Part shown: piece by piece, positions 3,001 through 64,000 of the stretch
Position numbering within the stretch: the stretch's first letter is position 1
How the letters are laid out: each line of letters starts with the position of its first letter
Origin: Hexactinellida sp. DTS-2022
Taxonomy: Eukaryota; Porifera; Hexactinellida
Direction of reading: 5' to 3'
Assembly (NCBI GenBank): GCA_028753945.1
Contig: JAPNXP010000017.1
Location: forward strand, 2,232,001 to 2,296,000
DNA length: 64,000 nucleotides
The notes under the pieces: model-generated
Told to the model about the DNA's origin: nothing
The model's database searches: none
What the model saw: only the letters and a program-made list of their open reading frames with translations
Made by a program: the position numbers and the translations under genes

Positions 3001-3791
3001 TTGTCTTCTTTCGACAATTCTCTCACTTTTGCTATAAGCGGCATTTGCTTGCTAAGTGGCACGTCCGACAGCCAATCAGAAGACAGGATCTCAGACACAG
3101 TGCATCTGCTGTGGACATCTCGCACCAGCATTCTCTTCAGGAGTCTGCAATGTGGAACTAACTTATGTATAGTTCCAATTATAAGATAATTTTTTTCTAA
3201 ATTTTCAAGACGTTAAAATTTGCCAATAAAATTACAATTTACAGTCAGTTCTGATTATTGTGAACAATATTTCGTCTGCTTAACATGAAACTTTTAAGAA
3301 CAAGCCCTATGGTCCCAATTTAACAACTTACATAAGGTTTGTATTAAGTTGAGTTCGCTTATTATAAAGTCTCTCTATTATGAACACAATATTATTCCCA
3401 TGAATGTTCATACAGTAGAACCTCGTTAGTACGAACACGGTTAATTAATACGAATTTCCGGATAAGACGAACAAACAACAGTTCCACAAAATCAGGTCCC
3501 TAGTATGGCTATTCAATGGGTATTACTCCGGATAAAGCGAACATATTTCACCGTCCCCTGGTGTTCGTATTAACGAGGTTCTACTGTATCAGGAACCGGA
3601 CTGTACTAACAGAGAGGGTATAACCTAACACCTCTAATAGGAACTAACCGTTTACAGGCCGCAGGAATATAATCCGGGATATAATACTTCTCGTCCATAA
3701 TGTTAGTTAGAGTCTCGTTCTCATTTCCCGCAGCAAACGGAGATCTGCCGACCAGCATCATGTACAGGAGCACTCCCATGCTCCACACGTC

Positions 3792-3822
<31 letters not shown>

Positions 3823-5360
3823 TAGTTATTATTATAGGAACTAGATCATCTTGTAAATTCATATTTCGCCCGGAATTTGGGCTTACTTATATATGGGTCA
3901 ACACCTTTTCAATATAAAAACCCGTTTCGAAAAAGTGAATTTTTGAGTTTAGAAATGACATTGTCAGTGCCTGTAATTCCATTAGAAAAGGTGTTATCCG
4001 ATATACAGTATAACAGGGTTATAACGTACCCCCTCGGGAATGGAATAAGTACGTACTAACCGAGTTTACCCTACATAGAAATACATACTGCTTTATTAAC
4101 TTGGTTAAACAAATAAGCACGTACTAACCCAAGGTAAGTAATAACCGAGTTTACTGTATAAGTAATTCCGATTTATATTTTGCCGGGGAATTTGCCCCCA
4201 CATGTGGTTACTTTCAGTTCCATATTACTATAGTTCCACATTACTGTAGAGGTGTTACTCACCAACAGCTGGTCCGTCGTACGACTCTCCTAAGAATATT
4301 TCCGGAGCCGAGTACTCAAGAGAACCACAGAGGGTTTGTAACTTCTGCCCGGGCCTACAGTTTGCAGATAATCCGAAATCCGTGAGTTTAACCAAATCGT
4401 GAGCGAAGAAAACTATATTTTCAGGCTTTAAATCTCTGTGTACAATGTGTAGCTCGTGGCAATACTTAATAGCATTAACTATCTGTAGAAATAGTTTCTT
4501 AGCAAACTCTATGTCTCGAGTCTCCTTCATTCCGTGAGGGTACTTCTTCTCAATAAAGTCGTATAAGTCCCCCCCGGTGCCAAGCTCTAGGATCAGGTAT
4601 AGCTTGTTGTTCGTGTCTATTACCTAGAGAGGGAATTAAACATTATAACCAAACCATATAACCAACCTTATAACCTAGAGAGAGATATAAGGTAAACCTC
4701 TCTTTATGGAACTGTAACTATAGTCAGGTTATTGTATTATGAACATTCAAGGGACCAAAATTGTGTTCATAATAGAGACTTTATAATAAGCGAACTCAAC
4801 TTTAATACAACAAACCCTATGTAAGTTGTTAAATTGGGACCATAGGGCTTGTTCATAAAAAGCAGACCTGACTGTAGTTCCTTATGAAGAGGTGTTAGTT
4901 CCACATTGTCTCACCCAATTAGCTGTAAATACGAATGCTATGTTGTTATTTACAAGTTACAGGTGTGTTTACCTGATACAGAGTGACCACATTGGTGTGC
5001 TTGACCAGCTTCATGCACTTTATACATATACATATCTTAACACCTCTATATATTTGTTGTTATTTACGTGTGTTTACCTGATACAGAGTGACCACATTGG
5101 TGTGCTTGACTAGCTTCATGCACTGCACCTCCTGCACCAACTGTTCCTTGGCCTCTTTGGCGTCGGAGCGGTTATACAGCTTAGTCTTGTCGATAACCTT
5201 AACGGCAACTCTCTGCCCGGTGAACACGTGGCGAGCCCGCTTAACCACTCCGAAGTGACCCTCTCCTAAGGTGTTGTTGTTGTTAGGATAACATGTTGTG
5301 TTGTTGTTGTTTACAGTAGGATAACATGTTGTGTTGTTGTTACAGTTATATAACATGTTG

Positions 5361-5402
<42 letters not shown>

Positions 5403-6984: not shown

Positions 6985-7026
6985 ATGCCTATGCCTATGC
7001 CTATGCCTATGCCTATGCCTATGCCT
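6985..7026. repeat. (ATGCCT)7 hexanucleotide repeat
   Basis: Seven perfect ATGCCT units in tandem, 42 bp, preceded by a partial unit. Confidence 0.97.
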
Positions 7027-7392: not shown

Positions 7393-7442
7393 GACTGGAA
7401 GCCTATTTGGGCACAATAAAGAAATCAATCAAGAGATTAATA

Positions 7443-7556
7443 ATCCTGAAATTTTAATGAATTTTGAATCCCAAAAAGGTCTGGTGTATATAATTTGCTA
7501 TATATTGTACTCAAAATGCGTACAATGTTATAAAGTGGATATATAAAGTGCGAATA
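7443..7556. repeat. Diverged partial monomer at the left edge of the satellite
   Basis: From about 7450 the sequence aligns with the second part of the monomer (TTTTGAATCCCAAAAAGGTC against TTTCAAATCCCAACGAAGGT), then becomes canonical by about 7480, ending in the AAAGTGCGAATAT tail variant. Higher divergence at the edge than inside is typical of arrays homogenised by unequal exchange. Confidence 0.85.
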
Positions 7557-8210
7557 TTAACGAGGTTCTCCTTTGTAGAATGTCCTAGATATAGAAAGTA
7601 TGAATGTTTCATTATGTTATTGGTTGATATAATGAATTTCAAATCCCAACGAAGGTCTACTATATATAATTTGCTATATATTGTACTCAAAATGCGTACA
7701 ATGTTATAAAGTGGATATTTAAATTAGCAAATACTAACGAGGTTCTCCTTTGTAGAATGTCCTAGATATAGAAAGTATGAATGTTTCATTATGTTATTGG
7801 TTGATATAATTAATTTCAAATCCCAACGAAGGTCTACTATATATAATTTGCTATATATTGTACTCAAAATGCGTACAATGTTATAAAGTGGATATTTAAA
7901 TTAGCAAATACTAACGAGGTTCTCCTTTGTAGAATGTCCTAGATATAGAAAGTATGAATGTTTCATTATGTTATTGGTTGATATAATTAATTTCAAATCC
8001 CAACGAAGGTCTACTATATATAATGTGCCATATATTGTACGCAAAATGCGTACAATATTATAAAGTGGATATATAAATTGCGAATATACTAACGAGGTTC
8101 TCCTTTGTAGAATGTCCTAGATATAGAAAGTATGAATGTTTCATTATGTTATTGGTTGATATAATGAATTTCAAATCCCAACGAAGGTCTACTATATATA
8201 ATGTGCCATA

Positions 8211-11200
8211 CATTGTACGCAAAATGCGTACAATGTTATAAAGTGGATATTTAAATTAGCAAATACTAACGAGGTTCTCCTTTGTAGAATGTCCTAGATA
8301 TAGAAAGTATGAATGTTTCATTATGTTATTGGTTGATATAATTAATTTCAAATCCCAACGAAGGTCTACTATATATAATGTGCCATATATTGTACGCAAA
8401 ATGCGTACAATATTATAAAGTGGATATATAAATTGCGAATATACTAACGAGGTTCTCCTTTGTAGAATGTCCTAGATATAGAAAGTATGAATGTTTCATT
8501 ATGTTATTGGTTGATATAATGAATTTCAAATCCCAACGAAGGTCTACTATATATAATTTGCTATATATTGTACTCAAAATGCGTACAATGTTATAAAGTG
8601 GATATTTAAATTAGCAAATACTAACGAGGTTCTCCTTTGTAGAATGTCCTAGATATAGAAAGTATGAATGTTTCATTATGTTATTGGTTGATATAATTAA
8701 TTTCAAATCCCAACGAAGGTCTACTATATATAATGTGCCATATATTGTACGCAAAATGCGTACAATATTATAAAGTGGATATATAAATTGCGAATATACT
8801 AACGAGGTTCTCCTTTGTAGAATGTCCTAGATATAGAAAGTATGAATGTTTCATTATGTTATTGGTTGATATAATGAATTTCAAATCCCAACGAAGGTCT
8901 ACTATATATAATGTGCCATATATTGTACGCAAAATGCGTACAATATTATAAAGTGGATATATAAATTGCGAATATACTAACGAGGTTCTCCTTTGTAGAA
9001 TGTCCTAGATATAGAAAGTATGAATGTTTCATTATGTTATTGGTTGATATAATGAATTTCAAATCCCAACGAAGGTCTACTATATATAATGTGCCATATA
9101 TTGTACGCAAAATGCGTACAATATTATAAAGTGGATATATAAATTGCGAATATACTAACGAGGTTCTCCTTTGTAGAATGTCCTAGATATAGAAAGTATG
9201 AATGTTTCATTATGTTATTGGTTGATATAATGAATTTCAAATCCCAACGAAGGTCTACTATATATAATGTGCCATATATTGTACGCAAAATGCGTACAAT
9301 ATTATAAAGTGGATATATAAATTGCGAATATACTAACGAGGTTCTCCTTTGTAGAATGTCCTAGATATAGAAAGTATGAATGTTTCATTATGTTATTGGT
9401 TGATATAATGAATTTCAAATCCCAACGAAGGTCTACTATATATAATGTGCCATATATTGTACGCAAAATGCGTACAATATTATAAAGTGGATATATAAAT
9501 TGCGAATATACTAACGAGGTTCTCCTTTGTAGAATGTCCTAGATATAGAAAGTATGAATGTTTCATTATGTTATTGGTTGATATAATTAATTTCAAATCC
9601 CAACGAAGGTCTACTATATATAATGTGCCATATATTGTACGCAAAATGCGTACAATATTATAAAGTGGATATATAAATTGCGAATATACTAACGAGGTTC
9701 TCCTTTGTAGAATGTCCTAGATATAGAAAGTATGAATGTTTCATTATGTTATTGGTTGATATAATGAATTTCAAATCCCAACGAAGGTCTACTATATATA
9801 ATGTGCCATACATTGTACGCAAAATGCGTACAATGTTATAAAGTGGATATTTAAATTAGCAAATACTAACGAGGTTCTCCTTTGTAGAATGTCCTAGATA
9901 TAGAAAGTATGAATGTTTCATTATGTTATTGGTTGATATAATTAATTTCAAATCCCAACGAAGGTCTACTATATATAATGTGCCATATATTGTACGCAAA
10001 ATGCGTACAATATTATAAAGTGGATATATAAATTGCGAATATACTAACGAGGTTCTCCTTTGTAGAATGTCCTAGATATAGAAAGTATGAATGTTTCATT
10101 ATGTTATTGGTTGATATAATGAATTTCAAATCCCAACGAAGGTCTACTATATATAATTTGCTATATATTGTACTCAAAATGCGTACAATGTTATAAAGTG
10201 GATATTTAAATTAGCAAATACTAACGAGGTTCTCCTTTGTAGAATGTCCTAGATATAGAAAGTATGAATGTTTCATTATGTTATTGGTTGATATAATTAA
10301 TTTCAAATCCCAACGAAGGTCTACTATATATAATGTGCCATATATTGTACGCAAAATGCGTACAATATTATAAAGTGGATATATAAATTGCGAATATACT
10401 AACGAGGTTCTCCTTTGTAGAATGTCCTAGATATAGAAAGTATGAATGTTTCATTATGTTATTGGTTGATATAATGAATTTCAAATCCCAACGAAGGTCT
10501 ACTATATATAATGTGCCATATATTGTACGCAAAATGCGTACAATATTATAAAGTGGATATATAAATTGCGAATATACTAACGAGGTTCTCCTTTGTAGAA
10601 TGTCCTAGATATAGAAAGTATGAATGTTTCATTATGTTATTGGTTGATATAATGAATTTCAAATCCCAACGAAGGTCTACTATATATAATGTGCCATATA
10701 TTGTACGCAAAATGCGTACAATATTATAAAGTGGATATATAAATTGCGAATATACTAACGAGGTTCTCCTTTGTAGAATGTCCTAGATATAGAAAGTATG
10801 AATGTTTCATTATGTTATTGGTTGATATAATGAATTTCAAATCCCAACGAAGGTCTACTATATATAATGTGCCATATATTGTACGCAAAATGCGTACAAT
10901 ATTATAAAGTGGATATATAAATTGCGAATATACTAACGAGGTTCTCCTTTGTAGAATGTCCTAGATATAGAAAGTATGAATGTTTCATTATGTTATTGGT
11001 TGATATAATGAATTTCAAATCCCAACGAAGGTCTACTATATATAATGTGCCATATATTGTACGCAAAATGCGTACAATATTATAAAGTGGATATATAAAT
11101 TGCGAATATACTAACGAGGTTCTCCTTTGTAGAATGTCCTAGATATAGAAAGTATGAATGTTTCATTATGTTATTGGTTGATATAATTAATTTCAAATCC

Positions 11201-11767
11201 CAACGAAGGTCTACTATATATAATGTGCCATATATTGTACGCAAAATGCGTACAATATTATAAAGTGGATATATAAATTGCGAATATACTAACGAGGTTC
11301 TCCTTTGTAGAATGTCCTAGATATAGAAAGTATGAATGTTTCATTATGTTATTGGTTGATATAATTAATTTCAAATCCCAACGAAGGTCTACTATATATA
11401 ATGTGCCATATATTGTACGCAAAATGCGTACAATATTATAAAGTGGATATATAAATTGCGATTATACTAACGAGGTTCTCCTTTGTAGAATGTCCTAGAT
11501 ATAGAAAGTATGAATGTTTCATTATGTTATTGGTTGATATAATGAATTTCAAATCCCAACGAAGGTCTACTATATATAATGTGCCATATATTGTACGCAA
11601 AATGCGTACAATATTATAAAGTGGATATATAAATTGCGAATATACTAACGAGGTTCTCCTTTGTAGAATGTCCTAGATATAGAAAGTATGAATGTTTCAT
11701 TATGTTATTGGTTGATATAATGAATTTCAAATCCCAACGAAGGTCTACTATATATAATGTGCCATAC
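8211..11767. repeat. Higher-order repeat block: 9-mer (1600 bp) then 11-mer
   Basis: Class B monomers mark the units at 8211, 9811 and 11767. Monomer order is B-A-C followed by six A, then B-A-C followed by eight A. The first spacing is 1600 bp, equal to two 177-bp plus seven 178-bp monomers. The second unit is longer by two A monomers (1956 bp). Confidence 0.75.
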
Positions 11768-14700
11768 ATTGTACGCAAAATGCGTACAATGTTATAAAGT
11801 GGATATTTAAATTAACAAATACTAACGAGGTTCTCCTTTGTAGAATGTCCTAGATATAGAAAGTATGAATGTTTCATTATGTTATTGGTTGATATAATTA
11901 ATTTCAAATCCCAACGAAGGTCTACTATATATAATGTGCCATATATTGTACGCAAAATGCGTACAATATTATAAAGTGGATATATAAATTGCGAATATAC
12001 TAACGAGGTTCTCCTTTGTAGAATGTCCTAGATATAGAAAGTATGAATGTTTCATTATGTTATTGGTTGATATAATGAATTTCAAATCCCAACGAAGGTC
12101 TACTATATATAATTTGCTATATATTGTACTCAAAATGCGTACAATATTATAAAGTGGATATATAAATTGCGAATATACTAACGAGGTTCTCCTTTGTAGA
12201 ATGTCCTAGATATAGAAAGTATGAATGTTTCATTATGTTATTGGTTGATATAATTAATTTCAAATCCCAACGAAGGTCTACTATATATAATGTGCCATAC
12301 ATTGTACGCAAAATGCGTACAATGTTATAAAGTGGATATTTAAATTAGCAAATACTAACGAGGTTCTCCTTTGTAGAATGTCCTAGATATAGAAAGTATG
12401 AATGTTTCATTATGTTATTGGTTGATATAATGAATTTCAAATCCCAACGAAGGTCTACTATATATAATGTGCCATATATTGTACGCAAAATGCGTACAAT
12501 ATTATAAAGTGGATATATAAATTGCGAATATACTAACGAGGTTCTCCTTTGTAGAATGTCCTAGATATAGAAAGTATGAATGTTTCATTATGTTATTGGT
12601 TGATATAATGAATTTCAAATCCCAACGAAGGTCTACTATATATAATGTGCCATATATTGTACGCAAAATGCGTACAATATTATAAAGTGGATATATAAAT
12701 TGCGAATATACTAACGAGGTTCTCCTTTGTAGAATGTCCTAGATATAGAAAGTATGAATGTTTCATTATGTTATTGGTTGATATAATTAATTTCAAATCC
12801 CAACGAAGGTCTACTATATATAATGTGCCATACATTGTACGCAAAATGCGTACAATGTTATAAAGTGGATATTTAAATTAGCAAATACTAACGAGGTTCT
12901 CCTTTGTAGAATGTCCTAGATATAGAAAGTATGAATGTTTCATTATGTTATTGGTTGATATAATTAATTTCAAATCCCAACGAAGGTCTACTATATATAA
13001 TGTGCCATATATTGTACGCAAAATGCGTACAATATTATAAAGTGGATATATAAATTGCGAATATACTAACGAGGTTCTCCTTTGTAGAATGTCCTAGATA
13101 TAGAAAGTATGAATGTTTCATTATGTTATTGGTTGATATAATGAATTTCAAATCCCAACGAAGGTCTACTATATATAATGTGCCATATATTGTACGCAAA
13201 ATGCGTACAATATTATAAAGTGGATATATAAATTGCGAATATACTAACGAGGTTCTCCTTTGTAGAATGTCCTAGATATAGAAAGTATGAATGTTTCATT
13301 ATGTTATTGGTTGATATAATGAATTTCAAATCCCAACGAAGGTCTACTATATATAATGTGCCATATATTGTACGCAAAATGCGTACAATATTATAAAGTG
13401 GATATATAAATTGCGAATATACTAACGAGGTTCTCCTTTGTAGAATGTCCTAGATATAGAAAGTATGAATGTTTCATTATGTTATTGGTTGATATAATGA
13501 ATTTCAAATCCCAACGAAGGTCTACTATATATAATGTGCCATACATTGTACGCAAAATGCGTACAATGTTATAAAGTGGATATTTAAATTAGCAAATACT
13601 AACGAGGTTCTCCTTTGTAGAATTTCCTAGATATTGAAAGTATGAATGTTTCATTATGTTATTGGTTGATATAATTAATTTCAAATCCCAACGAAGGTCT
13701 ACTATATATAATGTGCCATACATTGTACGCAAAATGCGTACAATGTTATAAAGTGGATATTTAAATTAGCAAATACTAACGAGGTTCTCCTTTGTAGAAT
13801 GTCCTAGATATAGAAAGTATGAATGTTTCATTATGTTATTGGTTGATATAATGAATTTCAAATCCCAACGAAGGTCTACTATATATAATGTGCTATATAT
13901 TGTACTCAAAATGCGTACAATGTTATAAAGTGGATATTTAAATTAGCAAATACTAACGAGGTTCTCCTTTGTAGAATGTCCTAGATATAGAAAGTATGAA
14001 TGTTTCATTATGTTATTGGTTGATATAATTAATTTCAAATCCCAACGAAGGTCTACTATATATAATGTGCCATATATTGTACGCAAAATGCGTACAATAT
14101 TATAAAGTGGATATATAAATTGCGAATATACCAACGAGGTTCTCCTTTGTAGAATGTCCTAGAAATAGAAAGTATGAATGTTTCATTATGTTATTGGTTG
14201 ATATAATGAATTTCAAATCCCAACGAAGGTCTACTATATATAATGTGCCATATATTGTACGCAAAATGCGTACAATATTATAAAGTGGATATATAAATTG
14301 CGAATATACTAACGAGGTTCTCCTTTGTAGAATGTCCTAGATATAGAAAGTATGAATGTTTCATTATGTTATTGGTTGATATAATGAATTTCAAATCCCA
14401 ACGAAGGTCTACTATATATAATGTGCCATACATTGTACGCAAAATGCGTACAATGTTATAAAGTGGATATTTAAATTAGCAAATACTAACGAGGTTCTCC
14501 TTTGTAGAATGTCCTAGATATAGAAAGTATGAATGTTTCATTATGTTATTGGTTGATATAATTAATTTCAAATCCCAACGAAGGTCTACTATATATAATT
14601 TGCTATATATTGTACTCAAAATGCGTACAATGTTATAAAGTGGATATTTAAATTAGCAAATACTAACGAGGTTCTCCTTTGTAGAATGTCCTAGATATAG

Positions 14701-15315
14701 AAAGTATGAATGTTTCATTATGTTATTGGTTGATATAATGAATTTCAAATCCCAACGAAGGTCTACTATATATAATGTGCCATACATTGTACGCAAAATG
14801 CGTACAATGTTATAAAGTGGATATTTAAATTAGCAAATACTAACGAGGTTCTCCTTTGTAGAATGTCCTAGATATAGAAAGTATGAATGTTTCATTATGT
14901 TATTGGTTGATATAATGAATTTCAAATCCCAACGAAGGTCTACTATATATAATGTGCCATACATTGTACGCAAAATGCGTACAATGTTATAAAGTGGATA
15001 TTTAAATTAGCAAATACTAACGAGGTTCTCCTTTGTAGAATGTCCTAGATATAGAAAGTATGAATGTTTCATTATGTTATTGGTTGATATAATTAATTTC
15101 AAATCCCAACGAAGGTCTACTATATATAATTTGCTATATATTGTACTCAAAATGCGTACAATGTTATAAAGTGGATATTTAAATTAGCAAATACTAACGA
15201 GGTTCTCCTTTGTAGAATGTCCTAGATATAGAAAGTATGAATGTTTCATTATGTTATTGGTTGATATAATGAATTTCAAATCCCAACGAAGGTCTACTAT
15301 ATATAATGTGCCATA

Positions 15316-17802
15316 CATTGTACGCAAAATGCGTACAATGTTATAAAGTGGATATTTAAATTAGCAAATACTAACGAGGTTCTCTTTTGTAGAATGTCCT
15401 AGATATAGAAAGTATGAATGTTTCATTATGTTATTGGTTGATATAATTAATTTCAAATCCCAACGAAGGTCTACTATATATAATGTGCCATATATTGTAC
15501 GCAAAATGCGTACAATATTATAAAGTGGATATATAAATTGCGAATATACTAACGAGGTTCTCCTTTGTAGAATGTCCTAGATATAGAAAGTATGAATGTT
15601 TCATTATGTTATTGGTTGATATAATGAATTTCAAATCCCAACGAAGGTCTACTATATATAATGTGCCATATATTGTACGCAAAATGCGTACAATATTATA
15701 AAGTGGATATATAAATTGCGAATATACTAACGAGGTTCTCCTTTGTAGAATGTCCTAGATATAGAAAGTATGAATGTTTCATTATGTTATTGGTTGATAT
15801 AATGAATTTCAAATCCCAACGAAGGTCTACTATATATAATGTGCCATACATTGTACGCAAAATGCGTACAATGTTATAAAGTGGATATTTATATTAGCAA
15901 ATACTAACGAGGTTCTCCTTTGTAGAATGTCCTAGATATAGAAAGTATGAATGTTTCATTATGTTATTGGTTGATATAATTAATTTCAAATCCCAACGAA
16001 GGTCTACTATATATAATGTGCCATATATTGTACGCAAAATGCGTACAATATTATAAAGTGGATATATAAATTGCGAATATACTAACGAGGTTCTCCTTTG
16101 TAGAATGTCCTAGATATAGAAAGTATGAATGTTTCATTATGTTATTGGTTGATATAATGAATTTCAAATCCCAACGAAGGTCTACTATATATAATGTGCC
16201 ATATATTGTACGCAAAATGCGTACAATATTATAAAGTGGATATATAAATTGCGAATATACTAACGAGGTTCTCCTTTGTAGAATGTCCTAGATATAGAAA
16301 GTATGAATGTTTCATTATGTTATTGGTTGATATAATGAATTTCAAATCCCAACGAAGGTCTACTATATATAATGTGCCATACATTGTACGCAAAATGCGT
16401 ACAATGTTATAAAGTGGATATTTAAATTAGCAAATACTAACGAGGTTCTCCTTTGTAGAATGTCCTAGATATAGAAAGTATGAATGTTTCATTATGTTAT
16501 TGGTTGATATAATTAATTTCAAATCCCAACGAAGGTCTACTATATATAATGTGCCATATATTGTACGCAAAATGCGTACAATATTATAAAGTGGATATAT
16601 AAATTGCGAATATACTAACGAGGTTCTCCTTTGTAGAATGTCCTAGATATAGAAAGTATGAATGTTTCATTATGTTATTGGTTGATATAATGAATTTCAA
16701 ATCCCAACGAAGGTCTACTATATATAATGTGCCATACATTGTACGCAAAATGCGTACAATGTTATAAAGTGGATATTTAAATTAGCAAATACTAACGAGG
16801 TTCTCCTTTGTAGAATTTCCTAGATATAGAAAGTATGAATGTTTCATTATGTTATTGGTTGATATAATTAATTTCAAATCCCAACGAAGGTCTACTATAT
16901 ATAATGTGCCATATATTGTACGCAAAATGCGTACAATTTTATAAAGTGGATATATAAATTGCGAATATACTAACGAGGTTAACCTTTGTAGAATGTCCTA
17001 GATATAGAAAGTATGAATGTTTCATTATGTTATTGGTTGATATAATGAATTTCAAATCCCAACGAAGGTCTACTATATATAATGTGCCATATATTGTACG
17101 CAAAATGCGTACAATATTATAAAGTGGATATATAAATTGCGAATATACTAACGAGGTTCTCCTTTGTAGAATGTCCTAGATATAGAAAGTATGAATGTTT
17201 CATTATGTTATTGGTTGATATAATGAATTTCAAATCCCAACGAAGGTCTACTATATATAATGTGCCATACATTGTACGCAAAATGCGTACAATGTTATAA
17301 AGTGGATATTTAAATTAGCAAATACTAACGAGGTTCTCCTTTGTAGAATGTCCTAGATATAGAAAGTATGAATGTTTCATTATGTTATTGGTTGATATAA
17401 TTAATTTCAAATCCCAACGAAGGTCTACTATATATAATGTGCCATATATTGTACGCAAAATGCGTACAATATTATAAAGTGGATATATAAATTGCGAATA
17501 TACTAACGAGGTTCTCCTTTGTAGAATGTCCTAGATATAGAAAGTATGAATGTTTCATTATGTTATTGGTTGATATAATGAATTTCAAATCCCAACAAAG
17601 GTCTACTATATATAATGTGCCATATATTGTACGCAAAATGCGTACAATATTATAAAGTGGATATATAAATTGCGAATATACTAACGAGGTTCTCCTTTGT
17701 AGAATGTCCTAGATATAGAAAGTATGAATGTTTCATTATGTTATTGGTTGATATAATGAATTTCAAATCCCAAAAAGGTCTACTATATATAATGTGCCAT
17801 AC
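15316..17802. repeat. Trimer higher-order repeat stretch, about 533 bp period (B-A-A)
   Basis: The B-specific motif CATTGTACGC occurs at 15316, 15849, 16382, 16737, 17270 and 17802. Spacings are 533, 533, 355, 533 and 532, i.e. B-A-A trimers with one dimer; the 532 reflects a 1-nt deletion in CCCAAAAAGG near 17771. Similar 533-bp steps occur at 11767, 12300 and 12833. Confidence 0.7.
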
Positions 17803-29200: not shown

Positions 29201-30018
29201 AGGTTCTCCTTTGTAGAATGTCCTAGATATAGAAAGTATGAATGTTTCATTATGTTATTGGTTGATATAATTAATTTCAAATCCCAACGAAGGTCTACTG
29301 TATATAATGGGCTATATATTGTACGCAAAATGCGTACAATGTTATAAAGTGGATATATAATTGCGAATACTAACGAGGTTCTCCTTTGTAGAATGTCCTA
29401 GATATAGAAAGTATGAATGTTTCATTATGTTATTGGTTGATATAATGAATTTCAAATCCCAACGAAGGTCTACTATATATAATGTGCCATACATTGTACG
29501 CAAAATGCGTACAATGTTATAAAGTGGATATTTAAAATTAGCAAATACTAACGAGGTTCTCCTTTGTAGAATGTCCTAGATATAGAAAGTATGAATGTTT
29601 CATTATGTTATTGGTTGATATAATTAATTTCAAATCCCAACGAAGGTCTACTATATATAATGTGCCATATATTGTACGCAAAATGCGTACAATATTATAA
29701 AGTGGATATATAAATTGCGAATATACTAACGAGGTTCTCCTTTGTAGAATGTCCTAGATATAGAAAGTATGAATGTTTCATTATGTTATTGGTTGATATA
29801 ATTAATTTCAAATCCCAACGAAGGTCTACTATATATAATGTGCCATATATTGTACGCAAAATGCGTACAATATTATAAAGTGGATATATAAATTGCGAAT
29901 ATACTAACGAGGTTCTCCTTTGTAGAATGTCCTAGATATAGAAAGTATGAATGTTTCATTATGTTATTGGTTGATATAATTAATTTCAAATCCCAACGAA
30001 GGTCTACTGTATATAATG
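23294..30018. repeat. D-monomer higher-order repeats: 6-mer (1061-1063 bp) and 8-mer (1415 bp)
   Basis: GGGC of class D lies at 23294, 24709, 25770, 26833, 27894, 29309 and 30018. Spacings are 1415, 1061, 1063, 1061, 1415 and 709. The private variant GGTCGACTATATA is at 24161 and 28761, and the F monomers at about 23520 and 28118, all giving a 4600-bp (26-monomer) longer-range repeat. Confidence 0.75.
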
Positions 30019-50900: not shown

Positions 50901-53199
50901 ATTAATTTCAAATCCCAACGAAGGTCTACTATATATAATGTGCCATATATTGTACGCAAAATGCGTACAATGTTATAAAGTGGATATATAAATTGCGAAT
51001 ATACTAACGAGGTTCTCCTTTGTAGAATGTCCTAGATATAGAAAGTATGAATGTTTCATTATGTTATTGGTTGATATAATGAATTTCAAATCCCAACGAA
51101 GGTCTACTATATATAATTTGCTATATATTGTACTCAAAATGCGTACAATGTTATAAAGTGGATATTTAAATTAGCAAATACTAACGAGGTTCTCCTTTGT
51201 AGAATGTCCTAGATATAGAAAGTATGAATGTTTCATTATGTTATTGGTTGATATAATTAATTTCAAATCCCAACGAAGGTCTACTATATATAATTTGCTA
51301 TATATTGTACTCAAAATGCGTACAATGTTATAAAGTGGATATTTAAATTAGCAAATACTAACGAGGTTCTCCTTTGTAGAATGTCCTAGATATAGAAAGT
51401 ATGAATGTTTCATTATGTTATTGGTTGATATAATGAATTTCAAATCCCAACGAAGGTCTACTATATATAATGTGCCATACATTGTACGCAAAATGCGTAC
51501 AATGTTATAAAGTGGATATTTAAATTAGCAAATACTAACGAGGTTCTCCTTTGTAGAATGTCCTAGATATAGAAAGTATGAATGTTTCATTATGTTATTG
51601 GTTGATATAATTAATTTCAAATCCCAACGAAGGTCTACTATATATAATGTGCCATATATTGTACGCAAAATGCGTACAATATTATAAAGTGGATATATAA
51701 ATTGCGAATATACTAACGAGGTTCTCCTTTGTAGAATGTCCTAGATATAGAAAGTATGAATGTTTCATTATGTTATTGGTTGATATAATGAATTTCAAAT
51801 CCCAACGAAGGTCTACTATATATAATTTGCTATATATTGTACTCAAAATGCGTACAATGTTATAAAGTGGATATTTAAATTAGCAAATACTAACGAGGTT
51901 CTCCTTTGTAGAATGTCCTAGATATAGAAAGTATGAATGTTTCATTATGTTATTGGTTGATATAATGAATTTCAAATCCCAACGAAGGTCTACTATATAT
52001 AATGTGCCATACATTGTACGCAAAATGCGTACAATGTTATAAAGTGGATATTTAAATTAGCAAATACTAACGAGGTTCTCCTTTGTAGAATGTCCTAGAT
52101 ATAGAAAGTATGAATGTTTCATTATGTTATTGGTTGATATAATTAATTTCAAATCCCAACGAAGGTCTACTATATATAATGTGCCATATATTGTACGCAA
52201 AATGCGTACAATATTATAAAGTGGATATATAAATTGCGAATATACTAACGAGGTTCTCCTTTGTAGAATGTCCTAGATATAGAAAGTATGAATGTTTCAT
52301 TATGTTATTGGTTGATATAATGAATTTCAAATCCCAACGAAGGTCTACTATATATAATGTGCCATATATTGTACGCAAAATGCGTACAATATTATAAAGT
52401 GGATATATAAATTGCGAATATACTAACGAGGTTCTCCTTTGTAGAATGTCCTAGATATAGAAAGTATGAATGTTTCATTATGTTATTGGTTGATATAATT
52501 AATTTCAAATCCCAACGAAGGTCTACTATATATAATTTGCTATATATTGTACTCAAAATGCGTACAATGTTATAAAGTGGATATTTAAATTAGCAAATAC
52601 TAACGAGGTTCTCCTTTGTAGAATGTCCTAGATATAGAAAGTATGAATGTTTCATTATGTTATTGGTTGATATAATGAATTTCAAATCCCAACGAAGGTC
52701 TACTATATATAATGTGCCATATATTGTACGCAAAATGCGTACAATATTATAAAGTGGATATATAAATTGCGAATATACTAACGAGGTTCTCCTTTGTAGA
52801 ATGTCCTAGATATAGAAAGTATGAATGTTTCATTATGTTATTGGTTGATATAATTAATTTCAAATCCCAACGAAGGTCTACTGTATATAATGGGCTATAT
52901 ATTGTACGCAAAATGCGTACAATGTTATAAAGTGGATATATAATTGCGAATACTAACGAGGTACTCCTTTGTAGAATGTCCTAGATATAGAAAGTATGAA
53001 TGTTTCATTATGTTATTGGTTGATATAATTAATTTCAAATCCCAACGAAGGTCTACTATATAATGTGCCATATATTGTACTCAAAATGCGTACAATGTTA
53101 TAAAGTGGATATATAAAGTGCGAATATTACCGAGGTTCTCCTTTGTAGAATGTCCTAGATATAGAAAGTATGAATGTTTCATTATGTTATTGGTTGATA

Positions 53200-56100
53200 T
53201 AATTAATTTCAAATCCCAACGAAGGTCTACTATATATAATTTGCTATATATTGTACTCAAAATGCGTACAATGTTATAAAGTGGATATTTAAATTAGCAA
53301 ATACTAACGAGGTTCTCCTTTGTAGAATGTCCTAGATATAGAAAGTATGAATGTTTCATTATGTTATTGGTTGATATAATGAATTTCAAATCCCAACGAA
53401 GGTCTACTATATATAATGTGCCATACATTGTACGCAAAATGCGTACAATGTTATAAAGTGGATATTTAAATTAGCAAATACTAACGAGGTTCTCCTTTGT
53501 AGAATGTCCTAGATATAGAAAGTATGAATGTTTCATTATGTTATTGGTTGATATAATGAATTTCAAATCCCAACGAAGGTCTACTATATATAATGTGCCA
53601 TATATTGTACGCAAAATGCGTACAATATTATAAAGTGGATATATAAATTGCGAATATACTAACGAGGTTCTCCTTTGTAGAATGTCCTAGATATAGAAAG
53701 TATGAATGTTTCATTATGTTATTGGTTGATATAATGAATTTCAAATCCCAACGAAGGTCTACTATATATAATGTGCCATATATTGTACGCAAAATGCGTA
53801 CAATATTATAAAGTGGATATATAAATAGCGAATATACTAACGAGGTTCTCCTTTGTCGAATGTCCTAGATATAGAAAGTATGAATGTTTCATTATGTTAT
53901 TGGTTGATATAATGAATTTCAAATCCCAACGAAGGTCTACTATATATAATGTGCCATACATTGTACGCAAAATGCGTACAATGTTATAAAGTGGATATTT
54001 AAATTAGCAAATATTAACGAGGTTCTCCTTTGTAGAATGTCCTAGATATAGAAAGTATGAATGTTTCATTATGTTATTGGTTGATATAATTAATTTCAAA
54101 TCCCAACGAAGGTCTACTATATATAATGTGCCATATATTGTATGCAAAATGCGTACAATATTATAAAGTGGATATATAAATTGCGAATATACTAACGAGG
54201 TTCTCCTTTGTAGAATGTCCTAGATATAGAAAGTATGAATGTTTCATTATGTTATTGGTTGATATAATTAATTTCAAATCCCAACGAAGGTCTACTATAT
54301 ATAATGTGCCATATATTGTACGCAAAATGCGTACAATATTATAAAGTGGATATATAAATTGCGAATATACTAACGAGGTTCTCCTTTGTAGAATGTCCTA
54401 GATATAGAAAGTATGAATGTTTCATTATGTTATTGGTTGATATAATTAATTTCAAATCCCAACGAAGGTCTACTATATATAATTTGCTATATATTGTACT
54501 CAAAATGCGTACAATGTTATAAAGTGGATATTTAAATTAGCAAATACTAACGAGGTTCTCCTTTGTAGAATGTCCTAGATATAGAAAGTATGAATGTTTC
54601 ATTATGTTATTGGTTGATATAATGAATTTCAAATCCCAACGAAGGCCTACTATATATAATGTGCCATACATTGTACGCAAAATGCGTACAATGTTATAAA
54701 GTGGATATTTAAATTAGCAAATACTAACGAGGTTCTCCTTTGTAGAATGTCCTAGATATAGAAAGTATGAATGTTTCATTATGTTATTGGTTGATATAAT
54801 GAATTTCAAATCCCAACGAAGGTCTACTATATATAATGTGCCATGCATTGTACGCAAAATGCGTACAATGTTATAAAGTGGATATTTAAATTAGCAAATA
54901 CTAACGAGGTTCTCCTTTGTAGAATGTCCTAGATATAGAAAGTATGAATGTTTCATTATGTTATTGGTTGATATAATGAATTTCAAATCCCAACGAAGGT
55001 CTACTATATATAATGTGCCATATATTGTACGCAAAATGCGTACAATATTATAAAGTGGATATATAAATTGCGAATATACTAACGAGGTTCTCCTTTGTAG
55101 AATGTCCTAGATATAGAAAGTATGAATGTTTCATTATGTTATTGGTTGATATAATGAATTTCAAATCCCAACGAAGGTCTACTATATATAATGTGCCATA
55201 TATTGTACGCAAAATGCGTACAATATTATAAAGTGGATATATAAATTGCGAATATACTAACGAGGTTCTCCTTTGTCGAATGTCCTAGATATAGAAAGTA
55301 TGAATGTTTCATTATGTTATTGGTTGATATAATGAATTTCAAATCCCAACGAAGGTCTACTATATATAATGTGCCATACATTGTACGCAAAATGCGTACA
55401 ATGTTATAAAGTGGATATTTAAATTAGCAAATATTAACGAGGTTCTCCTTTGTAGAATGTCCTAGATATAGAAAGTATGAATGTTTCATTATGTTATTGG
55501 TTGATATAATTAATTTCAAATCCCAACGAAGGTCTACTATATATAATGTGCCATATATTGTATGCAAAATGCGTTCAATATTATAAAGTGGATATATAAA
55601 TTGCGAATATACTAACGAGGTTCTCCTTTGTAGAATGTCCTAGATATAGAAAGTATGAATGTTTCATTATGTTATTGGTTGATATAATTAATTTCAAATC
55701 CCAACGAAGGTCTACTATATATAATTTGCTATATATTGTACTCAAAATGCGTACAATGTTATATAGTGGATATTTAAATTAGCAAATACCAACGAGGTTC
55801 TCCTTTGTAGAATGTCCTAGATATAGAAAGTATGAATGTTTCATTATGTTATTGGTTGATATAATGAATTTCAAATCCCAACGAAGGTCTACTATATATA
55901 ATGTGCCATACATTGTACGCAAAATGCGTACAATGTTATAAAGTGGATATTTAAATTAGCAAATACTAACGAGGTTCTCCTTTGTAGAATGTCCTAGATA
56001 TAGAAAGTATGAATGTTTCATTATGTTATTGGTTGATATAATTAATTTCAAATCCCAACGAAGGTCTACTATATATAATGTGCCATACATTGTACGCAAA

Positions 56101-59100
56101 ATGCGTACAATGTTATAAAGTGGATATTTAAATTAGCAAATACTAACGAGGTTCTCCTTTGAAGAATGTCCTAGATATAGAAAGTATGAATGTTTCATTA
56201 TGTTATTGGTTGATATAATTAATTTCAAATCCCAACGAAGGTCTACTATATATAATTTGCTATATATTGTACTCAAAATGCGTACAATGTTATAAAGTGG
56301 ATATTTAAATTAGCAAATACTAACGAGGTTCTCCTTTGTAGAATGTCCTAGATATAGAAAGTATGAATGTTTCATTATGTTATTGGTTGATATAATGAAT
56401 TTCAAATCCCAACGAAGGTCTACTATATATAATGTGCCATACATTGTACGCAAAATGCGTACAATGTTATAAAGTGGATATTTAAATTAGCAAATACTAA
56501 CGAGGTTCTCCTTTGTAGAATGTCCTAGATATAGAAAGTATGAATGTTTCATTATGTTATTGGTTGATATAATGAATTTCAAATCCCAACGAAGGTCTAC
56601 TATATATAATGTGCCATATATTGTACGCAAAATGCGTACAATATTATAAAGTGGATATATAAATTGCGAATATACTAACGAGGTTCTCCTTTGTAGAATG
56701 TCCTAGATATAGAAAGTATGAATGTTTCATTATGTTATTGGTTGATATAATGAATTTCAAATCCCAACGAAGGTCTACTATATATAATGTGCCATATATT
56801 GTACGCAAAATGCGTACAATATTATAAAGTGGATATATAAATTGCGAATATACTAACGAGGTTCTCCTTTGTCGAATGTCCTAGATATAGAAAGTATGAA
56901 TGTTTCATTATGTTATTGGTTGATATAATGAATTTCAAATCCCAACGAAGGTCTACTATATATAATGTGCCATACATTGTACGCAAAATGCGTACAATGT
57001 TATAAAGTGGATATTTAAATTAGCAAATATTAACGAGGTTCTCCTTTGTAGAATGTCCTAGATATAGAAAGTATGAATGTTTCATTATGTTATTGGTTGA
57101 TATAATTAATTTCAAATCCCAACGAAGGTCTACTATATATAATGTGCCATATATTGTATGCAAAATGCGTACAATATTATAAAGTGGATATATAAATTGC
57201 GAATATACTAACGAGGTTCTCCTTTGTAGAATGTCCTAGATATAGAAAGTATGAATGTTTCATTATGTTATTGGTTGATATAATTAATTTCAAATCCCAA
57301 CGAAGGTCTACTATATATAATGTGCCATATATTGTACGCAAAATGCGTACAATATTATAAAGTGGATATATAAATTGCGAATATACTAACGAGGTTCTCC
57401 TTTGTAGAATGTCCTAGATATAGAAAGTATGAATGTTTCATTATGTTATTGGTTGATATAATTAATTTCAAATCCCAACGAAGGTCTACTATATATAATT
57501 TGCTATATATTGTACTCAAAATGCGTACAATGTTATAAAGTGGATATTTAAATTAGCAAATACTAACGAGGTTCTCCTTTGTAGAATGTCCTAGATATAG
57601 AAAGTATGAATGTTTCATTATGTTATTGGTTGATATAATGAATTTCAAATCCCAACGAAGGCCTACTATATATAATGTGCCATACATTGTACGCAAAATG
57701 CGTACAATGTTATAAAGTGGATATTTAAATTAGCAAATACTAACGAGGTTCTCCTTTGTAGAATGTCCTAGATATAGAAAGTATGAATGTTTCATTATGT
57801 TATTGGTTGATATAATGAATTTCAAATCCCAACGAAGGTCTACTATATATAATGTGCCATGCATTGTACGCAAAATGCGTACAATGTTATAAAGTGGATA
57901 TTTAAATTAGCAAATACTAACGAGGTTCTCCTTTGTAGAATGTCCTAGATATAGAAAGTATGAATGTTTCATTATGTTATTGGTTGATATAATGAATTTC
58001 AAATCCCAACGAAGGTCTACTATATATAATGTGCCATATATTGTACGCAAAATGCGTACAATATTATAAAGTGGATATATAAATTGCGAATATACTAACG
58101 AGGTTCTCCTTTGTAGAATGTCCTAGATATAGAAAGTATGAATGTTTCATTATGTTATTGGTTGATATAATGAATTTCAAATCCCAACGAAGGTCTACTA
58201 TATATAATGTGCCATATATTGTACGCAAAATGCGTACAATATTATAAAGTGGATATATAAATTGCGAATATACTAACGAGGTTCTCCTTTGTCGAATGTC
58301 CTAGATATAGAAAGTATGAATGTTTCATTATGTTATTGGTTGATATAATGAATTTCAAATCCCAACGAAGGTCTACTATATATAATGTGCCATACATTGT
58401 ACGCAAAATGCGTACAATGTTATAAAGTGGATATTTAAATTAGCAAATATTAACGAGGTTCTCCTTTGTAGAATGTCCTAGATATAGAAAGTATGAATGT
58501 TTCATTATGTTATTGGTTGATATAATTAATTTCAAATCCCAACGAAGGTCTACTATATATAATGTGCCATATATTGTATGCAAAATGCGTTCAATATTAT
58601 AAAGTGGATATATAAATTGCGAATATACTAACGAGGTTCTCCTTTGTAGAATGTCCTAGATATAGAAAGTATGAATGTTTCATTATGTTATTGGTTGATA
58701 TAATTAATTTCAAATCCCAACGAAGGTCTACTATATATAATTTGCTATATATTGTACTCAAAATGCGTACAATGTTATATAGTGGATATTTAAATTAGCA
58801 AATACCAACGAGGTTCTCCTTTGTAGAATGTCCTAGATATAGAAAGTATGAATGTTTCATTATGTTATTGGTTGATATAATGAATTTCAAATCCCAACGA
58901 AGGTCTACTATATATAATGTGCCATACATTGTACGCAAAATGCGTACAATGTTATAAAGTGGATATTTAAATTAGCAAATACTAACGAGGTTCTCCTTTG
59001 TAGAATGTCCTAGATATAGAAAGTATGAATGTTTCATTATGTTATTGGTTGATATAATTAATTTCAAATCCCAACGAAGGTCTACTATATATAATGTGCC

Positions 59101-60750
59101 ATACATTGTACGCAAAATGCGTACAATGTTATAAAGTGGATATTTAAATTAGCAAATACTAACGAGGTTCTCCTTTGAAGAATGTCCTAGATATAGAAAG
59201 TATGAATGTTTCATTATGTTATTGGTTGATATAATTAATTTCAAATCCCAACGAAGGTCTACTATATATAATTTGCTATATATTGTACTCAAAATGCGTA
59301 CAATGTTATAAAGTGGATATTTAAATTAGCAAATACTAACGAGGTTCTCCTTTGTAGAATGTCCTAGATATAGAAAGTATGAATGTTTCATTATGTTATT
59401 GGTTGATATAATGAATTTCAAATCCCAACGAAGGTCTACTATATATAATGTGCCATACATTGTACGCAAAATGCGTACAATGTTATAAAGTGGATATTTA
59501 AATTAGCAAATACTAACGAGGTTCTCCTTTGTAGAATGTCCTAGATATAGAAAGTATGAATGTTTCATTATGTTATTGGTTGATATAATGAATTTCAAAT
59601 CCCAACGAAGGTCTACTATATATAATGTGCCATATATTGTACGCAAAATGCGTACAATATTATAAAGTGGATATATAAATTGCGAATATACTAACGAGGT
59701 TCTCCTTTGTAGAATGTCCTAGATATAGAAAGTATGAATGTTTCATTATGTTATTGGTTGATATAATGAATTTCAAATCCCAACGAAGGTCTACTATATA
59801 TAATGTGCCATATATTGTACGCAAAATGCGTACAATATTATAAAGTGGATATATAAATTGCGAATATACTAACGAGGTTCTCCTTTGTCGAATGTCCTAG
59901 ATATAGAAAGTATGAATGTTTCATTATGTTATTGGTTGATATAATGAATTTCAAATCCCAACGAAGGTCTACTATATATAATGTGCCATACATTGTACGC
60001 AAAATGCGTACAATGTTATAAAGTGGATATTTAAATTAGCAAATATTAACGAGGTTCTCCTTTGTAGAATGTCCTAGATATAGAAAGTATGAATGTTTCA
60101 TTATGTTATTGGTTGATATAATTAATTTCAAATCCCAACGAAGGTCTACTATATATAATGTGCCATATATTGTATGCAAAATGCGTACAATATTATAAAG
60201 TGGATATATAAATTGCGAATATACTAACGAGGTTCTCCTTTGTAGAATGTCCTAGATATAGAAAGTATGAATGTTTCATTATGTTATTGGTTGATATAAT
60301 TAATTTCAAATCCCAACGAAGGTCTACTATATATAATGTGCCATATATTGTACGCAAAATGCGTACAATATTATAAAGTGGATATATAAATTGCGAATAT
60401 ACTAACGAGGTTCTCCTTTGTAGAATGTCCTAGATATAGAAAGTATGAATGTTTCATTATGTTATTGGTTGATATAATTAATTTCAAATCCCAACGAAGG
60501 TCTACTATATATAATTTGCTATATATTGTACTCAAAATGCGTACAATGTTATAAAGTGGATATTTAAATTAGCAAATACTAACGAGGTTCTCCTTTGTAG
60601 AATGTCCTAGATATAGAAAGTATGAATGTTTCATTATGTTATTGGTTGATATAATGAATTTCAAATCCCAACGAAGGTCTACTATATATAATGTGCCATA
60701 CATTGTACGCAAAATGCGTACAATGTTATAAAGTGGATATTTAAATTAGC
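53200..60750. repeat. 17-mer higher-order repeat, 3016 bp, about 2.5 copies, with 1420/1596-bp sub-repeats
   Basis: The private variant TTTGTCGAATG (GTCG) is at 53855, 55275, 56871, 58291 and 59887, with spacings alternating 1420 and 1596. Markers at exactly 3016 bp include CCATGCATTG (54841, 57857), GGCCTACT (54645, 57661), GCGTTCAATATT (55571, 58587) and TTTGAAGAATG (56161, 59177). The 1420-bp (8-mer) and 1596-bp (9-mer) parts share the TATGCAAAATG variant, so they derive from each other. Confidence 0.85.
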
Positions 60751-62824
60751 AAATACTAACGAGGTTCTCCTTTGTAGAATGTCCTAGATATAGAAAGTAT
60801 GAATGTTTCATTATGTTATTGGTTGATATAATTAATTTCAAATCCCAACGAAGGTCTACTATATATAATGTGCCATATATTGTACGCAAAATGCGTACAA
60901 TATTATAAAGTGGATATATAAATTGCGAATATACTAACGAGGTTCTCCTTTGTAGAATGTCCTAGATATAGAAAGTATGAATGTTTCATTATGTTATTGG
61001 TTGATATAATGAATTTCAAATCCCAACGAAGGTCTACTATATATAATGTGCCATATATTGTACGCAAAATGCGTACAATATTATAAAGTGGATATATAAA
61101 TTGCGAATATACTAACGAGGTTCTCCTTTGTAGAATGTCCTAGATATAGAAAGTATGAATGTTTCATTATGTTATTGGTTGATATAATGAATTTCAAATC
61201 CCAACGAAGGTCTACTATATATAATGTGCCATACATTGTACGCAAAATGCGTACAATGTTATAAAGTGGATATTTAAATTAGCAAATACTAACGAGGTTC
61301 TCCTTTGTAGAATGTCCTAGATATAGAAAGTATGAATGTTTCATTATGTTATTGGTTGATATAATGAATTTCAAATCCCAACGAAGGTCTACTATATATA
61401 ATGTGCCATATATTGTACGCAAAATGCGTACAATATTATAAAGTGGATATATAAATTGCGAATATACTAACGAGGTTCTCCTTTGTAGAATGTCCTAGAT
61501 ATAGAAAGTATGAATGTTTCATTATGTTATTGGTTGATATAATGAATTTCAAATCCCAACGAAGGTCTACTATATATAATGTGCCATATATTGTACGCAA
61601 AATGCGTACAATATTATAAAGTGGATATATAAATTGCGAATATACTAACGAGGTTCTCCTTTGTAGAATGTCCTAGATATAGAAAGTATGAATGTTTCAT
61701 TATGTTATTGGTTGATATAATGAATTTCAAATCCCAACGAAGGTCTACTATATATAATGTGCCATACATTGTACGCAAAATGCGTACAATGTTATAAAGT
61801 GGATATTTAAATTAGCAAATACTAACGAGGTTCTCCTTTGTAGAATGTCCTAGATATAGAAAGTATGAATGTTTCATTATGTTATTGGTTGATATAATTA
61901 ATTTCAAATCCCAACGAAGGTCTACTATATATAATGTGCCATATATTGTACGCAAAATGCGTACAATATTATAAAGTGGATATATAAATTGCGAATATAC
62001 TAACGAGGTTCTCCTTTGTAGAATGTCCTAGATATAGAAAGTATGAATGTTTCATTATGTTATTGGTTGATATAATGAATTTCAAATCCCAACGAAGGTC
62101 TACTATATATAATGTGCCATATATTGTACGCAAAATGCGTACAATATTATAAAGTGGATATATAAATTGCGAATATACTAACGAGGTTCTCCTTTGTAGA
62201 ATGTCCTAGATATAGAAAGTATGAATGTTTCATTATGTTATTGGTTGATATAATGAATTTCAAATCCCAACGAAGGTCTACTATATATAATGTGCCATAC
62301 ATTGTACGCAAAATGCGTACAATGTTATAAAGTGGATATTTAAATTAGCAAATACTAACGAGGTTCTCCTTTGTAGAATGTCCTAGATATAGAAAGTATG
62401 AATGTTTCATTATGTTATTGGTTGATATAATTAATTTCAAATCCCAACGAAGGTCTACTATATATAATGTGCCATATATTGTACGCAAAATGCGTACAAT
62501 ATTATAAAGTGGATATATAAATTGCGAATATACTAACGAGGTTCTCCTTTGTAGAATGTCCTAGATATAGAAAGTATGAATGTTTCATTATGTTATTGGT
62601 TGATATAATTAATTTCAAATCCCAACGAAGGTCTACTATATATAATGTGCCATATATTGTACGCAAAATGCGTACAATATTATAAAGTGGATATATAAAT
62701 TGCGAATATACTAACGAGGTTCTCCTTTGTAGAATGTCCTAGATATAGAAAGTATGAATGTTTCATTATGTTATTGGTTGATATAATTAATTTCAAATCC
62801 CAACGAAGGTCTACTGTATATAAT

Positions 62825-63884
62825 GGGCTATATATTGTACGCAAAATGCGTACAATGTTATAAAGTGGATAATAAATTGAGAATACTAACGAGGTTCTCC
62901 TTTGTAGAATGTCCTAGATATAGAAAGTATGAAAGTTTCATTATGTTATTGGTTGATATAATTAATTTCAAATCCCAACGAAGGTCTACTATATATAATG
63001 TGCCATATATTGTACGCAAAATGCGTACAATGTTATAAAGTGGATATATAAATTGCGAATATACTAACGAGGTTCTCCTTTGTAGAATGTCCTAGATATA
63101 GAAAGTATGAATGTTTCATTATGTTATTGGTTGATATAATGAATTTCAAATCCCAACGAAGGTCTACTATATATAATTTGCTATATATTGTACTCAAAAT
63201 GCGTACAATGTTATAAAGTGGATATTTAAATTAGCAAATACTAACGAGGTTCTCCTTTGTAGAATGTCCTAGATATAGAAAGTATGAATGTTTCATTATG
63301 TTATTGGTTGATATAATGAATTTCAAATCCCAACGAAGGTCTACTGTATATAATGGGCTATATATTGTACGCAAAATGCGTACAATGTTATAAAGTGGAT
63401 ATATAATTGCGAATACTAACGAGGTTCTCCTTTGTAGAATGTCCTAGATATAGAAAGTATGAAAGTTTCATTATGTTATTGGTTGATATAATTAATTTCA
63501 AATCCCAACGAAGGTCTACTATATATAATGTGCCATATATTGTACGCAAAATGCGTACAATGTTATAAAGTGGATATATAAATTGCGAATATACTAACGA
63601 GGTTCTCCTTTGTAGAATGTCCTAGATATAGAAAGTATGAATGTTTCATTATGTTATTGGTTGATATAATGAATTTCAAATCCCAACGAAGGTCTACTAT
63701 ATATAATTTGCTATATATTGTACTCAAAATGCGTACAATGTTATAAAGTGGATATTTAAATTAGCAAATACTAACGAGGTTCTCCTTTGTAGAATGTCCT
63801 AGATATAGAAAGTATGAATGTTTCATTATGTTATTGGTTGATATAATGAATTTCAAATCCCAACGAAGGTCTACTATATATAAT
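62825..63884. repeat. Tandem 3-mer repeat, 530 bp, at the right end of the window
   Basis: D monomers lie at 62825 and 63355, and the private variant TATGAAAGTTTCA (for TATGAATGTTTCA) at 62931 and 63461, both 530 bp apart. The order is D-E-C in both. The first D has an altered tail (GGATAATAAATTGAGAATAC). Confidence 0.7.
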
Positions 63885-64000
63885 GTGCCATACATTGTAC
63901 GCAAAATGCGTACAATGTTATAAAGTGGATATTTAAATTAGCAAATACTAACGAGGTTCTCCTTTGTAGAATGTCCTAGATATAGAAAGTATGAATGTTT

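What the first reader, a model, noticed from the sequence alone, without database searches (positions are those of the whole stretch)
3413..64000. The satellite shares its core with the terminal repeat of a neighbouring pogo/Tigger-like MITE
AGAACCTCGTTAGTA, in the terminus of the intronic MITE at 3413, is found exactly (minus strand) in the typical monomer (tail GCGAATATACTAACG). In D monomers the second half-unit keeps more of the terminus: on the minus strand it reads TACAGTAGACCTTCGTT against TACAGTAGAACCTCGTT in the MITE, including the TA target dinucleotide. The MITE is 174 bp and the monomer 175-178 bp. This points to birth of the satellite by tandem amplification of a MITE or of MITE ends. 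A caveat is that the two terminus-like motifs in a monomer are in direct, not inverted, orientation.
Basis: partly seen in the sequence, partly recalled or inferred. Interest (0 to 1): 0.8.

Follow-up and report, generated by a model that had tools for sequence, protein, structure and literature searches.

The report
Satellite built on a transposon end
The tandem repeat that fills most of this window carries, in each of its two half-units, one end of a cut-and-paste DNA transposon; it probably grew from a short unit with a single transposon end, not from the neighbouring element.

Summary
The MITE at 3413-3586 is real and its 15-mer occurs in 299 of about 318 monomers; 1 of 2000 shuffles matches as well. 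(1) The neighbouring MITE is not the source: with its ends trimmed it resembles the monomer no more than shuffled sequence does. (2) The 174 versus 178 bp agreement is coincidence: the monomer is an old dimer of ~88-bp half-units (63 of 91 columns identical, z 7.5), and 88/89-bp arrays exist on contig C15. (3) Unit sequences match the pogo-type terminus at 16-17 of 19 bases (at most 15 in 8000 simulated 90-mers). One transposon end, not a whole MITE, seems to have gone into the founder. (4) An independent analogue exists: on C1 a 99-bp direct duplication repeats one MITE end plus flank. (5) Related arrays were read on 9 contigs and indicated by pattern hits on 7 more of 18, nearly all near contig ends. 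(6) Between arrays the terminus motifs are no better conserved than the rest; a 21-bp palindrome is. CENP-B-box-like retention is not supported. Ordinary in kind, well documented.

The parts
3413..3586 (.). 174-bp pogo-type MITE (subfamily I), inverted CAGTAGAACCTCGTTA ends
3411..3412 (.). TA target duplication, left copy
3587..3588 (.). TA target duplication, right copy
7455..64000 (.). Satellite array, mostly 177-178-bp monomers, each a dimer of ~88-bp half-units; continues past the window to about C9:2325198 in the stretches sampled
8087..8101 (-). Example of the B motif, inner part of the terminus (AGAACCTCGTTAGTA on the minus strand); 299 in the array
19722..19738 (-). Example of the A motif with its outer terminus and TA kept (D monomer, TACAGTAGACCTTCGTT on the minus strand); 18 in the window
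8002..8018 (-). Example of the common C9 form of the A motif, first base of the terminus lost; 286 in the window
8035..8055 (.). Example of the 21-bp palindrome TTGTACGCAAAATGCGTACAA; 250 exact copies in the window; best-conserved part between arrays

Best explanation
A ~88-bp founder sequence contained one pogo-type transposon terminus (about 19 recognisable bases with the TA, perhaps up to ~35) next to ~50 bp of other DNA that holds a palindrome. It was repeated in direct orientation, so every unit carries one terminus pointing the same way. A dimer of two diverged copies (A and B) became the 175-178-bp monomer seen here. The family spread among chromosome ends and each array was homogenised on its own; the window's C9 array is a recent, uniform expansion in which terminus A has mostly lost its first base. 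Amplification was probably by ordinary tandem-repeat processes (unequal exchange, perhaps slippage or DNA circles). Shown: anatomy, dimer structure, terminus match, distribution as far as sampled, array-specific variants. Inferred: order of events, mechanism of amplification, and that the end came from a MITE and not from a full-length pogo element.
For: Unit sequences match TACAGTAGAACCTCGTTAG at 16, 17, 16, 17 and 16 of 19 bases; 8000 Markov and 8000 shuffled sequences reach at most 15. Halves align at 63 of 91 columns, z 7.5. 88/89-bp arrays on C15. Remnants of three half-units at C1:15.5 kb and C6:5.35 Mb; the first C6 unit reads CAGTAGAACCTAGTTA, 15 of 16 bases of the MITE end. A keeps the outer part and B the inner part of the terminus. 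An independent 99-bp direct duplication of one MITE end plus flank at C1:6516570. No similarity to the window MITE outside the terminus.
Against: No dispersed single copy of the unit was found: all places at 2 mismatches to the extended terminus lie in or near array regions, and the 3-mismatch list was cut at 100 of 1554; so the founder itself is not seen. MITEs with the longer satellite-like end CAGTAGAACCTCGTTAGNATTCG do exist (5 places at up to 1 mismatch), but the 4 fetched are not the unit. The C15 unit shares only a 7-base exact word with the window MITE, which is chance level. C15 units join an A terminus to the spacer that follows B in dimers, so the 88-bp arrays may be a later collapse and not the ancestral state. 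The order terminus-first or repeat-first is not resolved.
Confidence: 0.68

Rival explanations
1. A MITE or its end inserted into an already existing tandem repeat, and the interrupted unit was then spread by homogenisation.
For: MITE ends are common in this genome and one is fused to the left edge of a small C9 array.
Against: Both half-units carry the terminus at the same place, so it would have had to enter before the A/B duplication; no array without it was found, but arrays were found with patterns from this family, so such an array could have been missed.
Confidence: 0.17
2. The terminus motif is kept because a pogo-derived, CENP-B-like protein binds it.
For: Pogo-type transposase domains are abundant here (114 DDE_1 matches). 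Within arrays the B motif varies less than the rest in 5 of 8 arrays and A in 5 of 8.
Against: Between 13 arrays A (0.118) and B (0.111) differ about as much as the rest (0.128); 100 of 157 and 78 of 160 windows are at least as conserved. The C9 array has lost the outer base of A in 286 copies against 18. Between arrays the palindrome is the conserved part (0.035; 4 of 154).
Confidence: 0.06
3. Tandem amplification of a whole ~174-bp MITE.
For: Similar length; MITE-MITE junctions exist (5 sites).
Against: Termini are direct, not alternating; the repeat is a dimer of 88 bp; the window MITE's interior does not match.
Confidence: 0.04
4. The dispersed MITE ends derive from the satellite, or both from a third source.
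For: The shared sequence alone does not give a direction.
Against: 14 of 20 dispersed copies read have an inverted partner end, and transposase loci carry a similar end; a transposon end needs no satellite to arise.
Confidence: 0.03
5. Chance similarity.
For: Fifteen bases are few and were picked after the fact; the C15 unit alone is at chance for exact words.
Against: 1 of 2000 shuffles; 16-17 of 19 in five unit sequences against at most 15 in 16000 simulated ones.
Confidence: 0.02

Closest known systems
Satellites derived from transposon parts, including terminal inverted repeats and MITEs (reviews PMC12628747 and PMC6947457; passages seen)
   Same: A tandem repeat that contains part of a DNA transposon; PMC12628747 states that satellites can arise from terminal inverted repeats.
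   Different: Here a single end per ~88-bp unit, in direct orientation; the source element is not identified beyond its end; later dimerised; mostly near chromosome ends.
Root-knot nematode satellites with a CENP-B-box-like motif (PMC3694981; passages seen)
   Same: Satellite monomers carry a motif related to pogo-family ends, and arrays are rearranged into higher-order forms.
   Different: There the box is a low-variability domain; here the terminus motifs are not better conserved than the rest between arrays.
Pogo family of Tc1/mariner elements (PMC7325037; passages seen)
   Same: TA target duplications and terminal inverted repeats of MITEs in this genome.
   Different: The satellite itself has no inverted pair of ends per unit and no transposase.
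Alpha satellite with CENP-B box (recalled; mentioned in the passages)
   Same: Monomer of about 171-178 bp with a pogo-like motif. By eye and from memory, the derived A motif shares CTTCGTTGG with the start of the box.
   Different: The rest of the box is not matched by eye; no centromere or protein evidence.

Membership tests
Pogo-type (Tc1/mariner) MITE: the element at 3413 | Terminal inverted repeats | tested here: met
   CAGTAGAACCTCGTTA at both ends, 3413-3586
Pogo-type (Tc1/mariner) MITE: the element at 3413 | TA target duplication | tested here: met
   TA at 3411-3412 and 3587-3588
Pogo-type (Tc1/mariner) MITE: the element at 3413 | Short, repeated in the genome | tested here: met
   14 of 20 sampled C1 places have a paired end 100-184 bp away
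Pogo-type (Tc1/mariner) MITE: the element at 3413 | Mobilised by a pogo-family transposase with the same ends | tested here: inconclusive
   DDE_1 (PF03184) has 114 matches; of 30 loci fetched, two (L014, L015) carry a related end CAGTAAAACCTCC beside TA; the exact end CAGTAGAACCTCGTT was not seen there
Satellite DNA | Long head-to-tail arrays with local homogenisation | tested here: met
   318.9 copies in the window, 96% matches; array-specific consensuses
Satellite built by tandem repetition of a whole MITE | Similarity over the whole MITE | tested here: not met
   Trimmed window MITE at shuffle level
Satellite built by tandem repetition of a whole MITE | Inverted pair of ends in each monomer | tested here: not met
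   Ends are direct in the half-units aligned
CENP-B-box satellite | Motif better conserved than the rest of the monomer | tested here: not met
   0.118 and 0.111 against 0.128; ranks 100 of 157 and 78 of 160
CENP-B-box satellite | Match to the 17-bp box | not tested
   Compared by eye with a recalled sequence only
CENP-B-box satellite | Bound by a CENP-B-like protein at centromeres | not testable with these tools
   Needs ChIP or cytology

The most novel reading that the evidence does not exclude
The direct, regularly spaced transposon ends are still usable: a pogo-type transposase cuts at TA-CAGTAG in the older arrays, so that blocks of whole units leave one chromosome end and enter another. 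That would explain how one satellite reached the ends of most chromosomes. The conserved 21-bp palindrome would be a second site, bound by a host factor.
Probability: 0.06. Interest if true: 0.8.

Novelty: new member of a known kind. Interest (0 to 1): 0.45.

Why it matters
Satellites are often said to come from transposons, but the steps are rarely visible. Here one genome holds a one-ended tandem duplication beside MITE sequence, 88-bp arrays, dimeric arrays, an array with a 528-bp (three-monomer) spacing and a freshly homogenised array, so the order of steps can be tested in sister species. It also warns that a transposon-end or CENP-B-box-like motif in a satellite can be mere ancestry: between arrays this motif is not the conserved part.

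Tried and rejected
Array edges: I lined up 32 edges by eye (17 starts, 15 ends; some share a flank and are not independent). About 6 fall within 4 bp of the terminus against about 3 expected, and several fall near its inner side. Looked at after seeing the data; counted as no result.

Left edge of the short C9 array (about C9:2332278-2333082): a terminus CAGTAGAACCTCGTTTGTAGGACA stands 58 bp before the end of the first A motif, making a TA-flanked mini-element. One other site in the genome resembles it at up to 3 mismatches and it is not satellite. With ends this common, coincidence is possible.

Compensatory changes in the palindrome: 399 one-arm changes and 2 double ones, counted on both strands, so 1 site. 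No evidence of selection on pairing.

Similarity to MITE subfamily II: best 3 and 4 of 500 among 12 tests, the others 42 to 329 of 500. Satellite-spacer model against MITE loci: best hit a reversed decoy, 10.7 bits, against 9.1 for the best real copy. Converse model: nothing below E = 1; real sequence above decoys (5.1 against 0.8 bits), but the top hits are in one array and on the strand opposite to the terminus. Unproven.

The 'all MITEs' test first looked significant (5, 3 and 0 of 200); one search shows that the top score comes from a nested pair in L054 that still held an untrimmed terminus.

Rows left out: one search uses 13 of 16 array consensuses (C15a, C15b and C6 lack a full monomer). 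In one search the pairs W 1976-2195 and L054 (322 bp) are not true single elements. C6:4370356 is a MITE end, not satellite.

Full report
What is there. The window is C9:2232001-2296000 of a 112.4-Mb genome in 18 contigs. The 174-bp element at 3413-3586 has inverted CAGTAGAACCTCGTTA ends and TA on both sides. It lies between two open stretches on the minus strand that read like kinase exons; two further stretches upstream in that gene match the kinase domain. The array from 7455 to the window end has mostly 177-178-bp monomers and, in the stretches sampled, runs on to about C9:2325198. A separate short array of about 4.5 monomers lies at C9:2332278-2333082.

The match. The exact 15-mer is found 299 times in the array. 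For each of two monomer consensuses, 1 of 2000 shuffles shares a word that long with the MITE. Genome-wide it occurs 4368 times against 0 for the backwards control. Of 20 scattered C1 places that I read (a run of places from the list), 14 had an inverted partner end 100-184 bp away. The terminus thus belongs to an abundant group of MITEs with, by my reading, at least three interiors.

Whole MITE or one end? With 24 bases trimmed from each end, the window MITE scores 19 against the monomer; 342 and 344 of 1000 shuffles do as well. In 12 tests against six unit sequences the window subfamily is at or near chance (lowest 38 of 500). Subfamily II has a collinear GGAATTC...CCA...ATA...TTGAAA stretch, best 3 and 4 of 500 in 12 tests, but a reversed decoy outscored the real copies in the model search. 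I treat it as unproven.

The unit. The two halves of the monomer align at 63 of 91 columns, z 7.5. C15 carries arrays of 88 and 89 bp, and C1:15.5 kb and C6:5.35 Mb hold remnants of three half-units each. So the two direct termini in a monomer are one terminus, duplicated. Five unit sequences match TACAGTAGAACCTCGTTAG at 16-17 of 19 bases; 8000 Markov sequences and 8000 shuffles reach at most 15. A keeps the outer part and B the inner part; the first C6 unit reads CAGTAGAACCTAGTTA, both parts but for one base, although no TA stands directly before it. C15 units combine an A terminus with the palindrome spacer that follows B in dimers, so they may be a secondary collapse. Against this reading, the C15 unit on its own shares no exact word longer than chance with the window MITE.

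Looking for the founder. The terminus extended by the satellite's own inner bases gave no place at 0 or 1 mismatch. All places at 2 mismatches lie in array regions or, on C6, in the remnant. The list of 3-mismatch places was cut, but before C1:9.88 Mb it showed only the C1:15.5-kb remnant. A shorter extension found 5 places at up to 1 mismatch; the 4 fetched carry MITE ends and not the unit.

An analogue of the first step. At C1:6516570-6516760 a block of 20 bp of flank plus 36 bp of MITE end is repeated directly at a distance of 99 bp, and the second copy continues into MITE sequence as far as read. C1:6592367-6592557 is identical over 191 of 191 bases, hence the same event copied. Its spacer does not resemble the satellite's significantly (lowest 32 of 500 in 14 tests). 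It is an independent event of the same shape, not the founder. Tail-to-head MITE junctions are few (5 sites).

Where the family lives. I read array DNA on 9 contigs: C1, C2, C6, C9, C11, C12, C14, C15 and C16. Pattern hits alone, not read, point to 7 more: C4, C5, C8, C10, C13, C17 and C18, with a single hit each on C4 and C10. C3 and C7 gave none in these searches, which sample rare variants and do not exclude arrays. The places found lie within 0.5 Mb of a contig end (for C8 by arithmetic on contig lengths), except the C1 array at 9.88-10.03 Mb of 17.64 Mb. C11 and C18 have places near both ends. The C14 array shows a 528-bp, three-monomer spacing and begins beside a 212-bp terminal repeat.

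Constraint. Between 13 array consensuses the mean pairwise difference is 0.118 at A, 0.111 at B, 0.035 at the palindrome TTGTACGCAAAATGCGTACAA and 0.128 elsewhere; 4 of 154 windows are as conserved as the palindrome. Within arrays the palindrome varies less than the rest in 7 of 8 (not in C11R, 0.056 against 0.022), and A and B in 5 of 8 each. If anything in the repeat is under selection, it is more likely this palindrome than the transposon end.

How it works. Most likely it no longer acts as a transposon: it is a chromosome-end satellite whose founder included a transposon end. Literature seen: passages of PMC5139131, PMC6947457, PMC3694981, PMC12628747 and PMC7325037 and listings. In these listings and passages I saw no satellite described as built on a single pogo end; only open-licence papers are held, and I read no paper in full.

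Noticed in passing
L087 (C14:1-600), L093 (C16:1-600), L094 (C1 end): Three contig ends consist of related 212-bp tandem repeats (about 80% alike). TTAGGG x4 has a single hit in the whole genome, with one mismatch. The chromosome ends may be complex repeats, or telomeres are not assembled; TTAGG was not searched.
   Followed up: partly
L001 (C1:14047-14891), L088 (C1:1-600): The start of C1 carries another tandem repeat of about 408 bp next to the satellite remnant.
   Followed up: no
window 8035-8055 and other monomers: The 21-bp palindrome is the best-conserved part of the satellite between arrays; what binds it, if anything, is unknown.
   Followed up: partly
C1:9880000-10032000: The only large interior array found, about 150 kb with interruptions, on the largest contig: a centromere or a fusion relic.
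   Followed up: no
L014 and L015 (C9:474783, C3:2932541): DDE_1 transposase loci with open frames of 391 and 543 aa have a related end, CAGTAAAACCTCCATTAGGGAACACC, next to TA.
   Followed up: no
window 5271-5501: Nested TGTTGT / 89-bp tandem repeat next to a kinase exon.
   Followed up: no
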